Part shown: positions 2,003-19,771 of the stretch, in pieces
Layout of the letters: every line of letters begins with the position of its first letter
How positions within the stretch are numbered: position 1 is the stretch's first letter
Assembly: GCA_944380765.1 (NCBI GenBank)
Contig: CALWIO010000007.1
Span: 1-64,000 of the forward strand
DNA length: 64,000 nt
Direction of reading: 5' to 3'
Origin: an uncultured Clostridia bacterium
Lineage (GTDB): Bacteria > Bacillota > Clostridia > Oscillospirales > Acutalibacteraceae
The notes under the pieces: model-generated
Seen by the model: only the letters and a program-made list of their open reading frames with translations
Databases searched by the model: none
What the model was told of the DNA's origin: nothing
Program-made: the position numbers and the translations under genes

Positions 2003-2041
2003 ACACTAAATAATTGAGGGCTTTTTAGGAGGTTTATAGTT

Positions 2042-3174
2042 ATAAATGGAAATACTATACAAATTTTAATTGCCGTGGTCATATATATGGCGATTGTAAT
2101 TGGGATTGGACTTGTTTATGCAAAGCGTGCTAATAAAAACTCTGAGGCATATTTTCTTGGCGGTCGCTCGTTAGGTCCTTGGGTAACGGCAATGAGTGCT
2201 GAAGCTTCAGATATGAGCGGTTAGCTTTTAATGGGACTTCCCGGTGTTGCTTATTGGTGCGGACTTGCAGATGCCGCTTGGACTGCAATAGGACTTGCAG
2301 TAGGTACATATATTAACTGGCTTATTGTTTCAAAACGTTTAAGACGATATAGTGTAATAGCCAATAATTCCATTACCTTGCCGGAGTTTTTCTCTAACCG
2401 ATTCAGAGAAAATAAAAAAGTAATAATGTTTATATCAAATGCATTTATTTTGATTTTTTTCACTGTTTATGCGGCAAGCCGCTTTGTTACCTGTGGCAAA
2501 TTGTTTTCTACATTATTTGGTGCGCCTTATGTGGCTATGATGATTGTGGGTGCAATATTTGTATTGCTTTACACCTTGTTGGGCGGTTTCCTTGCAGAAA
2601 GTATTTCCGACTTTATGCAGGCTATCGTGATGGTGGTTGCTTTGACTGTCATTGTGATAATAGGAACGGTTCAAGCAGGTGGTATTACTTCTGTTTTGGA
2701 TAATGCCGGAAATATTCCCGGATTTTTAGAATTCTTTGGAATGGCAACCCCTGCTTTAGATGCTAACAGTCAGCAGATTGTAGAATCGGGTAAACCCATA
2801 TTCAATGAGGCTTCCAATTATAGCGTTTTATCTATTTGCTCTATGCTTGCTTGGGGTCTTGGTTACTTTGGTATGCCGCAGGTACTGCTTAGATTTATGG
2901 CAATCCGTAAAGAAGATGAATTGAAAAGATCCCGCAGAATCGCAACTGTTTGGGTTTTAATTTCTCTGTCCGTTGCGGTATTTATCGGTATTGTTGGTCG
3001 TCAATTATTCCCTATAGCCCATCTTACCAAGAGTGCCGCTGAAAACATTTTCATCACTTTAGCAACCAACTCTTTACCAGCTATTTTAGCGGGATTTGTT
3101 ATGACGGGTATTTTAGCAGCAACAATCAGTTCTTCCGACTCTTATCTGCTTATTGCGGCATCGGCGTTAATAAA
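2042..3174 (+). pseudogene. Sodium:solute symporter (PutP-like), broken
   Basis: The reading frame matches the sodium:solute symporter family (proline or pantothenate type), which moves small solutes inward with sodium. The hallmark SAEASDMSG motif near residue 55 is followed by an in-frame TAG at 2222-2224 where the family has tryptophan (SGWLLMGLPG), a one-base TGG to TAG change. The expected start position, set by AGGAGG at 2027-2032, reads ATA at 2042. The similarity stops after the SSSDSYLLIAASAL motif around 3170, where unrelated GC-rich DNA begins, so the last helices are gone. An open frame of 384 codons remains from ATG 2231 but lacks the first helix and the C-terminal part. Three separate lesions make function unlikely. 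Confidence 0.8.
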
Positions 3175-3300
3175 ATGTGCCGGCGGCACATTTTTAGCCG
3201 GAAGCGCGAGGGCGGTACCGCACGCAAAGCGTGGGGTGTCCCGAGCAGGCAGTATGCGCGGCACAGCCGCAGCAGACGGTCAGATCCCGACACTCCGACC
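3175..3300 (+). other. Short GC-rich insert of unknown origin
   Basis: About 125 bases of strikingly GC-rich sequence follow the break in the symporter gene, within otherwise AT-rich DNA. It contains short inverted repeats but no convincing gene. The symporter frame runs through it as low-complexity sequence. It ends in ACTCCGACCA, which resembles the 3' end of a tRNA, but I could not fold a tRNA body upstream of it. It looks like the end of a mobile element or an attachment-site remnant. Confidence 0.4.
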
Positions 3301-3305
3301 AAAAA
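3292..3305 (+). repeat. Direct repeat copy 1 (possible att site)
   Basis: ACTCCGACCAAAAA occurs here and again at 5742-5755. It looks like a tRNA acceptor 3' end with CCA followed by A residues, as expected where a site-specific integrase has copied the end of a tRNA gene. The two copies bracket the zinc-ribbon/nuclease gene and its small partner. Confidence 0.5.
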
Positions 3306-3339
3306 TCCAAATTCGACTATTTGTCGGGTTTGGATTTTT
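3301..3339 (+). terminator. Rho-independent terminator
   Basis: The arms AAAAATCCAAATTCGAC and GTCGGGTTTGGATTTTT form a long hairpin with one G-T style mismatch, followed by CTTTTTT. It directly follows the first 14-bp direct repeat. Confidence 0.7.
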
Positions 3340-3525
3340 CTTTTTTATAAACGTTTTTTCACATTCTCCTATGGATTTTTACTGATTCAAAAATAGTTAA
3401 ACAAATAACATCACTCCTTTCATTTGCTATTTTCTAGTTTTATGGTATAATATTCTAAAATATATTAAAAGCGAGGTGCCAAGGTTATAGCAGAAAAGAA
3501 ATATATAATTGACAATGCCGAACTG

Positions 3526-5352
3526 ATGGCAGAATGGAATTGGGAAAAGAATAATGAATTAGGATTTGATCCAGAAAATTTAACACTTGGAAACAATAAA
3601 AAAGCTTGGTGGAAGTGTAGCAAGGGACACGAATGGCAAGCATCGGTAGTTAATAGAAATAAAGGGAGCGGTTGCCCATATTGCTCGGGTCGATACGCCA
3701 TTAAAGGTGAAAATGATTTAAAAACTGTTAATCCCACTTTGGCAAACGAATGGAACTACGAAAAAAATGGTAGTCTAAAACCTGAACATTTTACAGTAAA
3801 TAGTCATAAAAAAGTATGGTGGAAATGCCAAAAAGGACACGAGTGGCAAGTAACAATTTCTCACCGTACTAATGGTTCTGGTTGCCCTTATTGTGCAGGC
3901 CAAAAAGTTATAAAAGGCCATAATGATCTTCAAACAAGCAATCCAACTTTAGCACAAGAGTGGAATTATGAAAAAAATAAAGATTTAACACCTGAGGATG
4001 TAATGCCCAATAGCAATAAAAAAGTTTGGTGGAAATGTCAAAAAGGACACGAGTGGCAGACGTCGATAGCTAATAGAAATTATGGCTATGGATGCCCCAT
4101 TTGTAATTCCGAACGACATACTTCTTTCCCTGAATATGCAATTTTATACTATCTTAAAGAATATGGTTTAGAGGTAATACATTCATATAAAGAAAAAGGC
4201 TACGAATTGGACATTTATATCCCATCAAAAAGAATTGCTATTGAATATGACGGAAGTTTTTGGCACCAAAACAAAATAAAAAAAGATTTAGAAAAAAATC
4301 AAAAGTGCGAAAAAGATGGTATTAAATTATATAGGATAAGAGAAGGATTGCCACCATTAAATGACAGCTCTATAGATTACGTTGTTCAAGAAAATCAAAA
4401 AGATTTACCCATAATACTTGAAGAAATTTTAAGCGAAATAATTGGAACTAGTGTTGATGTTGACTTGGAAAGAGATAGTATTGCCATAGAAAATTTGCGA
4501 GAATATACAGAAAAAGAAACTTCTCTTTTATTTTCCAATCCTGAAATGGCAAACGAATGGAATCATGAAAAGAACGGTAAACTAAAGCCGGAACATTTTT
4601 CATCGAATAGTAATAAGCAAGTATGGTGGATGTGTAGTAACGGACACGAATGGAAAGCAAGAATAAGCAGTAGAAATGCTGGGAACGGATGTCCGTATTG
4701 CTCTGGCAAAAAAGTCTTGAATGGTTTTAATGATTTGCGAACAATCAATCCATCCTTAGCCCGAGAATGGAATCGCGAAAAGAATGGCAACCTAAAACCC
4801 GAACAATTTTCAGTTAACAGCGACAAAAAAGTATGGTGGAAATGCAGTAAAGGGCACGAGTGGGAAGCCACGATAAGTAATAGAAACAAAGGTACAGGGT
4901 GTCCATATTGTGCTGGCAAAAAAGTCTTAAAAGGATTTAACGATTTGCAAACAGTTAATCCCGATTTAGCAAAAGAATGGAATTATAATAAGAATATGGG
5001 ATTAACCCCCATGGATGTAATGCCTAAAAGCGGAAAAAAGGTATGGTGGATGTGTAGTGACGGACACGAGTGGCAGGCCACAATAGCGCACAGAACTAAT
5101 GGTAGCGGTTGTCCCTATTGCTCTGGCCGATACGTTATTATGGGAGTAAACGATTTAGAAACAGTTAACCCAACTTTAGCTAATGATTGGAATTATAAAA
5201 GAAACGGTGATTTAAAGCCAGTACAATTCTTAGCAAACAGCCATGAAAAAGTCTGGTGGAAGTGTAGTCAAGGACATGAGTGGCAAGCTTCAATATGTAA
5301 TAGAAATAAAGGACGTGGCTGTCCTATTTGTAGAAAAAACGGGAGATATTAA
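3526..5352 (+). CDS. Seven-repeat zinc-ribbon protein with internal nuclease-like domain
   Basis: A 608-residue protein built from seven copies of a zinc-ribbon unit of the DUF4379/treble-clef kind, each with CxxGHEW, a helix, then GCPYC or GCPIC. The first Cys of each copy lies near residues 31, 101, 171, 370, 440, 510 and 580: an exact 70-residue period, broken once by about 129 residues. That insert carries FPEYAILYYL, then YELDIYIPSKRIAIEYDG and a following WH, the pattern of Vsr/MutH-like PD-(D/E)XK endonucleases. I infer nucleic-acid binding by the ribbons and cleavage by the central domain, perhaps in defence or element maintenance. The frame stays open upstream; homologue-like sequence starts at an ATA (3487) behind GCGAGG, so the true start may be a mutated ATG there. 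A 1-base gap separates it from the next gene. Confidence 0.75.
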   Translation: MAEWNWEKNNELGFDPENLTLGNNKKAWWKCSKGHEWQASVVNRNKGSGCPYCSGRYAIKGENDLKTVNPTLANEWNYEKNGSLKPEHFTVNSHKKVWWKCQKGHEWQVTISHRTNGSGCPYCAGQKVIKGHNDLQTSNPTLAQEWNYEKNKDLTPEDVMPNSNKKVWWKCQKGHEWQTSIANRNYGYGCPICNSERHTSFPEYAILYYLKEYGLEVIHSYKEKGYELDIYIPSKRIAIEYDGSFWHQNKIKKDLEKNQKCEKDGIKLYRIREGLPPLNDSSIDYVVQENQKDLPIILEEILSEIIGTSVDVDLERDSIAIENLREYTEKETSLLFSNPEMANEWNHEKNGKLKPEHFSSNSNKQVWWMCSNGHEWKARISSRNAGNGCPYCSGKKVLNGFNDLRTINPSLAREWNREKNGNLKPEQFSVNSDKKVWWKCSKGHEWEATISNRNKGTGCPYCAGKKVLKGFNDLQTVNPDLAKEWNYNKNMGLTPMDVMPKSGKKVWWMCSDGHEWQATIAHRTNGSGCPYCSGRYVIMGVNDLETVNPTLANDWNYKRNGDLKPVQFLANSHEKVWWKCSQGHEWQASICNRNKGRGCPICRKNGRY

Positions 5353-16456: not shown

Positions 16457-17563
16457 TCAGAACTGGTCGTTTCCCTGCAGCGCGTCAAAGCCTTCCTCGC
16501 CGGTACGGACTTTAACCGCGTTTTCAACATCGTAAACAAATATCTTGCCGTCGCCGATATTTCCGGTGTAAAGCACCTGCTTGGCGGTTTCAATAACGCG
16601 GCGGACGGGAACTTTTGCAACAACAATTTCAACCTGAGCTTTCGGCTTTAAGTCCATGCTTTCAATTTTAACGCCTCTGTAATATCTGTCCTGACCTTTC
16701 TGTATGCCGCAGCCGAGCACCTTGGTAACGGTCATACCCGTAACGCCGATTGCGTTCATGGCGTTTTTAAGGTCCTCAAATTTTGATTCGTTGCACAAAA
16801 TCTCGATTTTTGTCAGCTTGCCTTCGGCTGAGGTTTCCTCAGCGCTTTCCATATCAGCGGCAGCTCCGTTGAAGCCGTACCAGCCGAACCAGAGGATAAA
16901 GCAGCCCAGCGCGCCGAGAGTTATCGAGTGACCGGGGATGGCGTTAACCTTAATGCTTCCGTCTTTGTTCTTGGAGTATTTGCCAAGTCTGGGGCCGAGA
17001 ATGGCCGTGCCGATAAGAGCCGAAATACCGCCGACCATGTGGATAAGGCATGAGCCTGCGAAATCCACAAATTCGGGCGAGCCTTCTCCGAAGAGGGTTG
17101 CGCCAAGGCGCGTCAGCCAGCCGCCGCTCCAAACCCAGTGAGCTTCAATGGGATAAACAACCGCGCTGATAACCGCGCTGTAAATGCAGTAAGCCGAAAA
17201 CTTTGTTCTTTCCGCCATGGCGCCGGAAACGATTGTAGCTGCGGTGGCGCAGAAAACAAGATTAAATACGAAGCTGTACCAGTCGTATGTATCAAAATCC
17301 GTGAACAGACCCATTGTGGGCAGTCCGAGGAATCCGCCCAGAGCGTCCTGACCGAGCAGCAGTCCGCCTCCCAAAAAAACAAATACCACGGTGCCTATGC
17401 AGAAATCCATAAGATTCTTCATAATGATGTTGCCGGCGTTTTTTGCCCTTGTAAAACCGGCTTCAACCATTGCAAAGCCCGCCTGCATAAAGAACACCAA
17501 CGCGGCTCCTATAAGGAACCAGACGCCTGTAGGCCCGTAGATGTTAGACATCAATTCTTCCAT
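16457..17563 (-). CDS. Half ammonium channel fused to a PII protein
   Basis: 368 residues. Residues 1 to about 240 match the first six helices of Amt ammonium channels ([20 protein letters not shown]; the twin-His partner in [11 protein letters not shown]; the sixth helix [11 protein letters not shown]). Amt proteins are about 400 residues with eleven helices, so helices 7-11 and the second pore His are missing. After an acidic linker ([14 protein letters not shown]) comes a complete PII/GlnK domain (residues about 253-365: [44 protein letters not shown]). The T-loop lacks the Tyr used for uridylylation. Amt-PII fusions with full channels are known in clostridia; this looks like such a gene after an in-frame deletion of roughly 200 codons, or a collapsed assembly. 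A PII-only role remains possible. Confidence 0.8.
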
Positions 17564-17584: not shown

Positions 17585-17667
17585 AAGGGCGCAGGTCGGA
17601 AAACCCAACCCACGCCCTTGTGGTAATAAAAACAAAAAAGCGCTGTGAACCTTAAAGTCCACAGCGC
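17585..17667 (-). promoter_or_regulatory. Leader with terminator hairpin before amt-PII
   Basis: On the minus strand, GCGCTGTG/CACAGCGC (17640-17667, loop GACTTTAAGGTT) is followed by TTTTTTGTTTTT: a complete terminator placed some 70 bases before the start codon of amt-PII. A second hairpin, AAGGGCG/CGCCCTT (17585-17619), lies between it and the ribosome site AAGGAGG. This layout suggests transcription attenuation. In clostridia, nitrogen genes are often controlled by ANTAR-domain antiterminators acting on such leaders; no ANTAR gene is in the window. Confidence 0.6.
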
Positions 17668-17846
17668 CTTTGCTGCTATGTGAAAATTTTACACCCGTAA
17701 AAATGCTTAGCCAAGAGAGAATTTGTGTTTTTTGTGCGTTTTGTATATTTGCATATTTAAAACAGGATTTAAAAAGCTTGCCTTTATATATTTTTTACAA
17801 AGTTGTTGCTGATTTCTGTAATTACAAAACAGTAATTTTTTTGATT

Positions 17847-18368
17847 TTAATTTACTCCCAGCTCATTTTGAGCGTCATTTGCTTTGCGGTATTCAACGCT
17901 TTCCTCTTCTGAATATTTTTGCCTCGCTTTCAGAATATTATAAACAGCTATCGCGATAATGCAGGATACCGCGCACATGTAAATTGAAAATACAGATATA
18001 TCATAGGTCGGTGAAGTTGCTGTGTCAATATTGAAAACCGCAGTAAAAAATACGGATAAATATAAGCTTATAAAGTTTGCGGCAATATAGGTCAAAACCG
18101 CGCCCAATACAAAAAATCCTGACGCTATTCCCGTAAAAGCGATTTTTTTGTAGGATTCCCCGCGTACATATTTAAAATATCTGTACCCCAAAAACGAGTA
18201 AAGACAGGCGGAAAAATACACACAAAGCGCCATAACCGTGCCTGATGATGAAGCGTGACGCTCCTGCGCGATTTTCAATATAACAAAATAAACCAATGAA
18301 ATACCAAGCAAAACCGCCGCTGAAATAAGAATATCTTTTGTAACACGCCCGCGCAAAGCTTTTTTCAT
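17847..18368 (-). CDS. Four-helix membrane protein of unknown function
   Basis: 173 residues. Hydrophobic segments lie near 13-35, 45-62, 75-110 and 125-145, and the ends are charged (basic start KKALRGRVTKD, acidic/polar tail SEEESVEYRKAND). No family is recognised. It is the second gene of a pair: the secreted-protein gene ends 23 bases upstream on the same strand. AGAGGTGATATT provides a good ribosome site. The pair sits in AT-richer DNA between the amt-PII gene and a conserved radical SAM gene. It may be a membrane partner of the secreted protein. Confidence 0.65.
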   Translation of the reverse strand: MKKALRGRVTKDILISAAVLLGISLVYFVILKIAQERHASSSGTVMALCVYFSACLYSFLGYRYFKYVRGESYKKIAFTGIASGFFVLGAVLTYIAANFISLYLSVFFTAVFNIDTATSPTYDISVFSIYMCAVSCIIAIAVYNILKARQKYSEEESVEYRKANDAQNELGVN

Positions 18369-18391
18369 AATATCACCTCTTTTAATTATGA

Positions 18392-19498
18392 TTACCAGTC
18401 ATTTGCGTAGTCCCAAGAATGAGACCAGTCATAATATTCCGGAGCAAAAAAATTGCTTATGGTTACACCTAACGGTCCCCAGTTGACAGAAAAAGAAGCA
18501 GAAAGAGGATTGCGTATATGCACATATCTAATATCTAACATAAAAAACTGATATTGGTTATTATAGTCTATTACGCGTCCAACAGAGAACAGTATAAAAG
18601 AGAAATTTCTGTAAAGTGTTTGAGCCAGTGGGTTATCGTTAGGCAGATTGTATTCAAAATATACTCCGCTGTTTGAAGAAACGGAGGCGGATATTGCGTC
18701 CAAACTATCTATTACATCTTCATTACTTATAAATATACCATTCTCGTCATAAGTCATTTTGCTGTATGCAGCAAATAAGAAATAATTTGATTGTCCGTTA
18801 GTTGTTTTTTCATACCAGTTTATATCATCAGAATGCATGGAAATAACATCAGTTTTTCGCATAACAGGAGTTTTAAGCCATAAGTATTCACCGATGAAAA
18901 CATATCTTCCAATTGATTGACCTTCACCATTGTAATTTGGCGTGTAAATTGCAAAAATCTGCATTTGCATATATCCATCCTCGGAAGTTCCTACATCACT
19001 TGAATGGCTGGTTGTCGGTCCGGTATCGGATTCGGTTGAAGCAGGCGAAATGTTTAATTGTGCTGAATTAAGTATTGCTTCTTCCCCGGCCGCGGCTTCC
19101 ATCGCTTCTTCACGGCTGACTTTGGTCTGGTTTCCGGCTCCGTCTGTTTTGATATATGAAGTTTCAACATGAATACTTTCAATATGAGACAGCTTTAAAT
19201 TTTCACTGATTTTTTCAAATTGTTGGTCAGAAACATTAAAATCAAGCGCTGTAAAAATATCTTTTAATTTTTCTTTATCGCTTTTGTGTTTATATTTTGC
19301 GGATTTTGAGATTCGAATACGATTTATATTATTACCGCTTAAAAATCGTATTTCGTGATCGCTGTATTGCCGAATCTGCACCATTGAATTCAAATCAATT
19401 GAGCCGTATTCATAGGCAAAAGCAGTTGCGGGAAAGGTAAACAGCAGTAAAACGGTCAAAACAAAGGCAATAAAAATCTTAATATTTTTTTCATACAA
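18392..19498 (-). CDS. Secreted protein of unknown function, start out of frame
   Basis: 368 codons. A clear signal peptide (IKIFIAFVLTVLLLF, cleavage probably after TAFA) is followed by about 340 polar residues rich in Ser, Asn and Tyr, with no recognised domain. The best start signal, AAGGAG seven bases before an ATG at 19492-19494, is not in the frame of the gene: it is followed by seven A residues and reaches a stop soon after. One extra A would give MKKNIKIFIAF and restore the whole protein. In frame as given, only a TTG at 19498 is available, too close to the ribosome site. This suggests slippage in the poly-A tract (phase variation), a recent mutation or a base-calling error. Confidence 0.6.
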   Translation of the reverse strand: MYEKNIKIFIAFVLTVLLLFTFPATAFAYEYGSIDLNSMVQIRQYSDHEIRFLSGNNINRIRISKSAKYKHKSDKEKLKDIFTALDFNVSDQQFEKISENLKLSHIESIHVETSYIKTDGAGNQTKVSREEAMEAAAGEEAILNSAQLNISPASTESDTGPTTSHSSDVGTSEDGYMQMQIFAIYTPNYNGEGQSIGRYVFIGEYLWLKTPVMRKTDVISMHSDDINWYEKTTNGQSNYFLFAAYSKMTYDENGIFISNEDVIDSLDAISASVSSNSGVYFEYNLPNDNPLAQTLYRNFSFILFSVGRVIDYNNQYQFFMLDIRYVHIRNPLSASFSVNWGPLGVTISNFFAPEYYDWSHSWDYANDW

Positions 19499-19771
19499 AT
19501 TCTCCTTTCAAATTATTACATATATAATATATCATAAAATTTTAAAAATGTAAATAATATATATAAATTTTTATAATCTACATAATTTTTTGTTAAAAAT
19601 ATATAAATTCCAAACACTGCCAAATACAATTTACCGGCGCAAAATTACAAAAAAGCAGATTTAACTTTTGCAACCGTCAGCCGCTTTATAAAAGGACTTT
19701 CGGGAAAAACACTTTAAACATTCGGTTGATTTTTACCGTGCTTTGAAATATAATCTATGTGCGGTGATAAA

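What the first reader, a model, noticed from the sequence alone, without database searches (positions are those of the whole stretch)
19485..19498. Poly-A tract after the start codon puts a secreted protein out of frame
Seen: on the minus strand an ideal AAGGAG site is followed by ATG and seven A residues, but that frame soon stops, while a 368-codon frame with a perfect signal peptide lies one base off. Eight A residues would join them (MKKNIKIF...). Known: homopolymer tracts at gene starts are a classic form of phase variation. Inference: this orphan secreted protein is switched on and off by slippage; a sequencing error is the plain alternative.
Basis: partly seen in the sequence, partly recalled or inferred. 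Interest (0 to 1): 0.52.

Follow-up and report, generated by a model that had tools for sequence, protein, structure and literature searches.

The report
Broken secreted gene beside intact partner
A gut-type bacterium carries a gene for an exported protein whose start and body are out of step by one base, next to an intact membrane-protein gene; relatives suggest a two-gene cassette, perhaps a toxin with its protector, whose exported half is often broken, and no on-off switch has been shown.

Summary
In detail: AAGGAG, 7 nt, ATG, seven A; the ATG frame stops after 12 codons and the 368-codon signal-peptide frame is one base off. Seven A after an ATG is ordinary here: 12 of 30 SD-ATG-A6+ sites read in this genome have A7, 10 of those 12 in frame, and the break cannot be pinned to the A run. 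The protein is no orphan. Among 20 related loci, 18 have a small membrane-protein gene just downstream, in five loci duplicated; the two-gene cassette is absent between the same flanking genes in the nearest sampled relative. The secreted gene is damaged in 5 of 20 (frame breaks in window, L002, L011; stop in L106; deletion in L003), each beside an open partner. Two other genes in the window are damaged. Best reading: a real, recent inactivation of the secreted half of an accessory, toxin/immunity-like cassette. The closest homologue, L002, has the same one-base offset at the same place, which argues against a simple consensus error but leaves slow slippage switching or unusual expression possible. 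Toxin/immunity function is inferred from anatomy, not tested.

The parts
19526..19554 (-). promoter-like site, TTTACA-17-TATATT with TG before the second hexamer
   Evidence: consensus match only
19502..19507 (-). Shine-Dalgarno AAGGAG, 7 nt before ATG and 3 nt before TTG
   Evidence: in 12 of 15 intact relatives the gap from the last SD tetramer to the start is 5-12 nt (9; L004, L093 and L094 read by eye)
19456..19494 (-). short ATG frame, 12 codons and stop, beginning with ATG and seven A
19485..19491 (-). A7 tract; length ordinary for this genome
18392..19498 (-). secreted-protein frame, 368 codons from TTG, one base off the ATG frame; family without an accepted Pfam, NCBIfam or PDB match
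17847..18368 (-). partner: 173-aa membrane protein, about 4 TM segments, open frame, own SD-like AGAGGTG
17801..19762 (.). approximate extent of the accessory cassette absent from relative G008 between the same two flanking genes
   Evidence: low GC
17636..17671 (-). terminator-like hairpin after the partner; sequence also present in G008, so it may belong to the host locus

Best explanation
The locus is a horizontally mobile-looking two-gene cassette: an exported protein of about 330-370 residues followed by a small integral membrane protein. The exported half has recently lost its reading frame within the first dozen codons, while promoter-like site, SD, coding body and the partner gene are kept. 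As assembled, ribosomes starting at the ATG make a 12-residue peptide and little or no exported protein, while the partner can still be made from its own SD. I infer that the exported protein is an antibacterial (bacteriocin-like) agent and the membrane protein its immunity factor, so the cell keeps protection without production. Shown: frames, family, cassette, its absence in a near relative, damage in 5 of 20 loci beside an open partner. Inferred: no expression, recency, toxin/immunity role.
For: Frames and SD. Eleven aligned members share invariant W207, P211, D217, P286, Y325, H327. Small TM gene right after the secreted gene in 18 of 20 loci (16, plus L060 and L061 read by eye); two tandem, related TM genes in 5 loci. 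In the genus the partner profile matched 4 places in 39 genomes, all beside a secreted gene. G008 has the flanking amt and radical-SAM genes with about 60 bp between the aligned blocks. Damage in 5 of 20: window, L002, L003, L011, L106. An unread frame of this length is still open in 0.8% of simulations at 0.1 events per site and in none of 2000 at 0.5, while window and L002 are near saturation at third positions (42% identity): the break is recent or bypassed. Two more damaged genes in the window: SSF symporter with an internal stop and lost C-terminus, Amt-PII fusion lacking about 210 residues. G000, 1.73 Mb, is smaller than the 11 other genus genomes listed at 98% complete or more (1.8-2.2 Mb). 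Precedent for immunity-only strains: pneumococcal blp (PMC4517551, passages).
Against: No assay or expression data; no family gives the partner an immunity function. 5 of 20 against 0 of 18 (Fisher p 0.048) is not corrected for gene length, and a broken partner would have counted as absent (L083 has none). Window, L002 and L003 group together with weak support, so the damage is clustered; at least 3 changes on the tree, 2 forced by starred branches. The same offset in window and L002 could be an inherited, tolerated state. The Amt deletion next door could hint at assembly trouble here.
Confidence: 0.55

Rival explanations
1. Phase variation: replication slippage in the A run after ATG switches the exported protein on and off reversibly.
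For: Tract directly after the start, frames one base apart, L002 offset at the same place. PMC2831843 (passages) reports 5' poly-A tracts enriched in bacterial genes, A6 to A7 reversion in inlA of the order of 1e-7 and A7/A8 switching of Mycoplasma vaa at 1e-3 to below 1e-4.
Against: A7 is ordinary here (12 of 30 sites); L002 has only A6; L011 and L106 are damaged elsewhere and L003 by deletion; no strain or read data; the break is not pinned to the tract.
Confidence: 0.14
2. The gene is expressed despite the offset, through the overlapping weak start (TTG here, ATT in L002) or a one-base slip by ribosome or polymerase.
For: The closest homologue L002 has the same offset at the same place, and both bodies are open after near-saturating divergence: one inherited arrangement would need one event, not two.
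Against: The start would lie 3 or 4 nt from GGAG, outside the 5-12 nt of 12 intact relatives (and by eye), and L002 has no ATG, GTG or TTG there. PMC6260861 (abstract): E. coli RNA polymerase needs a run of at least 7 T and even more A to slip; here A7 and A6. The 15 intact members start at an in-frame ATG or GTG.
Confidence: 0.13
3. Consensus or assembly error; the real gene is intact.
For: Assembly in 31 contigs; a neighbouring gene shows a large in-frame loss; plain alternative for any homopolymer.
Against: 24 of 30 comparable A6+ starts in this genome are in frame; L002, from a different assembly, has the same offset; the stop in the SSF gene is no homopolymer error.
Confidence: 0.13
4. 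Whatever broke the frame, the cassette is not toxin/immunity: the exported protein is anchored, exported or sensed by the membrane partner and is simply dispensable. (This rival concerns function and overlaps with the others.)
For: No functional annotation for either protein; L010's next gene is instead a 261-residue one-TM protein with partial similarity to the family.
Against: Small, very variable, tandem-duplicated membrane partners and patchy presence fit immunity genes better.
Confidence: 0.35

Closest known systems
Reversible inactivation by 5' poly-A tracts (Listeria inlA, Mycoplasma vaa; PMC2831843, passages seen)
   Same: A tract next to the gene start, frame lost early, short peptide made instead
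   Different: Variation not observed here; tract length ordinary for the genome; break not pinned to the tract; relatives damaged elsewhere
Pneumococcal blp bacteriocin 'cheaters' (PMC4517551, passages seen; Son 2011 cited there, not held)
   Same: Frame breaks on the production side, immunity genes kept
   Different: There the transporter gene is hit and the bacteriocins are small (size recalled); here an exported protein of about 370 residues with its own signal peptide
Bacteriocin or effector with adjacent membrane immunity gene (general kind, recalled)
   Same: Exported protein, adjacent small TM gene, tandem copies of the TM gene, patchy accessory distribution
   Different: No sequence similarity to a named family; function untested

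Membership tests
Phase-variable contingency gene | tract at which a unit change alters the frame | tested here: inconclusive
   A7 after ATG, frames one base apart, but the break may lie elsewhere in the first 12 codons
Phase-variable contingency gene | tract longer than the genome's norm | tested here: not met
   12 of 30 SD-ATG-A6+ sites have A7
Phase-variable contingency gene | variation within a clone or species | not testable with these tools
   one genome per species, no reads; one viral contigs pattern scan gave 0
Toxin/immunity (bacteriocin) locus | exported protein with signal peptide | tested here: met
   15 of 20 loci with intact start and signal-like N-terminus, judged by eye; no signal-peptide predictor was run
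Toxin/immunity (bacteriocin) locus | adjacent dedicated small membrane gene | tested here: met
   18 of 20 loci
Toxin/immunity (bacteriocin) locus | killing and specific protection | not testable with these tools
   needs bench assay
Young pseudogene | broken frame with otherwise intact, selected coding body | tested here: met
   368 open codons, family residues kept
Young pseudogene | no product made | not testable with these tools
   needs expression data
Programmed frameshift or slippage gene | conserved slip site in homologues | tested here: inconclusive
   same offset in L002 only (A7 and A6); 15 members start in frame
Alpha-hemolysin/leukocidin-type beta pore-former | fold | tested here: inconclusive
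   Foldseek best E 0.041, none of that family among the 50 rows shown; second look Z 7 or less with many such chains on a model of pLDDT 58; the model of the intact relative is worse and was not searched

The most novel reading that the evidence does not exclude
The offset shared by the window and its closest homologue is an inherited device: a decoy ATG in the ideal place makes a 4-12 residue peptide, and the potent exported protein is made only at trace level through slippage or the overlapping weak start, a built-in throttle for a secreted toxin.
Probability: 0.08. Interest if true: 0.7.

Novelty: new member of a known kind. Interest (0 to 1): 0.36.

Why it matters
It replaces 'orphan secreted protein' by a family with a dedicated membrane partner that Pfam-A, NCBIfam, PADLOC and the PDB do not name (by the searches run here), and it predicts something testable: that the membrane partners protect against intact exported members, and that gut Clostridia shed the costly half while keeping the protective half. 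If the shared offset proved to be functional, it would be an uncommon way to throttle a secreted protein.

Tried and rejected
A7 as special: rejected by the genome's own SD-ATG-A6+ sites. A real ATG TAT GAA AAA start elsewhere in the genome (L043): it lies inside a larger open frame, not a start. Ancient silent gene: rejected by openness after deep divergence. Orphan partner genes in the genus: none found. Phage, plasmid or viral-contig copies: none. Rfam element at the locus: none. Fold: best Foldseek E 0.041; the second look put many hemolysin-type beta pore-formers at Z 5.3-6.9 behind PsrP at 7.0; held as a lead only, because the model is weak; the second model was worse. Profile matches weaker than E 1e-8 were dropped from the family before counting: 2 of 4 matching genomes, 1 of 8, 20 of 30, 8 of 10, 11 of 16; most of them match only the signal-peptide end of the profile. 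The second G531 match, a piece in the neighbouring gene, was not counted as a locus. Remnants of partners were looked for only downstream of L060, L061, L083 and L010. The novelty statement rests and paper searches, none aimed at this family by name, since it has none.

Full report
Observation. On the minus strand AAGGAG (19507-19502) is followed after 7 nt by ATG (19494-19492) and seven A (19491-19485). The ATG frame runs 12 codons to a stop; the 368-codon frame 19498-18392 lies one base off and is listed from a TTG only 3 nt after GGAG. So the reading is correct.

Is the A run special? A pattern count in the window's own genome found 32 sites GGAG-N3-9-ATG-A6; loci for 30 were read. 12 of 30 have A7, none more; 24 of 30 are in frame with at least 88 codons, and 10 of the 12 A7 sites are in frame. 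A7 after ATG is therefore an ordinary spelling of Met-Lys-Lys here. Only this site has a long, otherwise unexplained frame one base off. Because the two frames overlap for a dozen codons, the position of the break is open.

Relatives. Protein and profile searches gave 20 loci at E 1e-8 or better: window, L002, L003, L004, L007, L010-L015, L017, L060-L062, L083, L093, L094, L106, L107. With the 3-row profile 8 of 398 family genomes matched; with the 11-row profile 30 of 398, of which 10 at E 1e-8 or better. Presence is patchy: 3 of 39 genus genomes by protein query, plus G007 by profile (which sampled only part of the genus). No plasmid or phage record matched. The family has no accepted Pfam, NCBIfam, PADLOC or PDB sequence match.

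Cassette. In 18 of 20 loci the next gene is a small membrane protein: 16 by script and two, L060 and L061, whose starts the script missed, by eye. L010 is followed by a 261-residue one-TM protein, L083 by none. In five loci (L013, L014, L062, L093, L094) two TM genes stand in tandem and align well above shuffled versions. In the genus the partner profile matched only at four cassette loci. In G008, the nearest relative by Amt identity (92%), the flanking amt and radical-SAM genes face each other with about 60 bp between the aligned blocks, so the cassette, of low GC, is accessory. The five genus loci sit beside different neighbours.

Damage. L002, the closest homologue (about 39% identity), has AGGAG, 8 nt, ATG, A6, and a stop after four codons, with its signal-peptide frame at the same one-base offset. 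L011 has a frame break between signal peptide and body. L106 has an internal stop. L003 lacks most of the gene. L004 and 14 others have an in-frame ATG or GTG start. So 5 of 20 are damaged, all with an open partner. Fisher against partners (0 of 18) gives p 0.048 without length correction, and broken partners would be missed. On a tree the damaged loci need at least 3 changes, with weak support inside the window-L002-L003 group.

Recent or tolerated? Window and L002 differ at 58% of third positions. A frame not read for that long would hold stops. Either two separate recent breaks hit the same short start region, or one inherited offset is tolerated by some expression. Against the second: the overlapping starts would be 3 and 4 nt from GGAG, where 12 of the 15 intact relatives have 5-12 nt (9; L004, L093 and L094 by eye; L013, L062 and L107 not measured), L002 has no ATG, GTG or TTG in that frame before the signal peptide, and bacterial RNA polymerase in E. 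coli needs at least 7 T and more A to slip (PMC6260861, abstract). I cannot exclude it.

Context of decay. The window holds two other damaged genes: an SSF symporter with a stop inside its N-terminal part and a missing C-terminus and an Amt-PII fusion lacking about 210 residues that relatives keep. G000 (1.73 Mb) is smaller than the 11 other genus genomes listed at 98% complete or more (1.8-2.2 Mb). Ordinary loss is therefore a sufficient cause.

Function. The anatomy (exported protein, variable and duplicated membrane partner, patchy presence, loss of the exported half with retention of the partner) resembles bacteriocin/immunity loci and the pneumococcal immunity-only strains (PMC4517551, passages). 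That is resemblance, not membership. The structure model (pLDDT 58) gives no significant Foldseek hit; the second look lists PsrP first and many hemolysin-type pore-formers below Z 7, a lead only.

Verdict. Observation confirmed, switch not shown, orphan status wrong; most likely a recent inactivation in a toxin/immunity-like cassette.

Noticed in passing
window 16457-17563 (-): Ammonium transporter fused to PII; relatives' fusions are 574-672-residue frames, this copy is 368 with about 210 residues missing in frame near 16826-16856.
   Followed up: partly
window about 2020-3385 (+): Sodium:solute symporter gene with a TAG inside its N-terminal part and an unrelated C-terminal tail in place of the last quarter of the profile.
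   Followed up: partly
window 3526-5352 (+): 608-residue protein of seven DUF4379 treble-clef repeats with a weak restriction-endonuclease-like match, in a low-GC stretch next to the broken symporter gene.
   Followed up: no
L013, L014, L062, L093, L094, downstream of the secreted gene: Tandem related TM genes after one secreted gene, like duplicated immunity genes.
   Followed up: partly
L010, gene after the secreted gene: 261-residue one-TM protein with partial similarity to the secreted family profile (33.7 bits).
   Followed up: no
L108 122-469: ParE/RelE-like toxin frame (recognised by eye, not searched) upstream of the G007 cassette.
   Followed up: no
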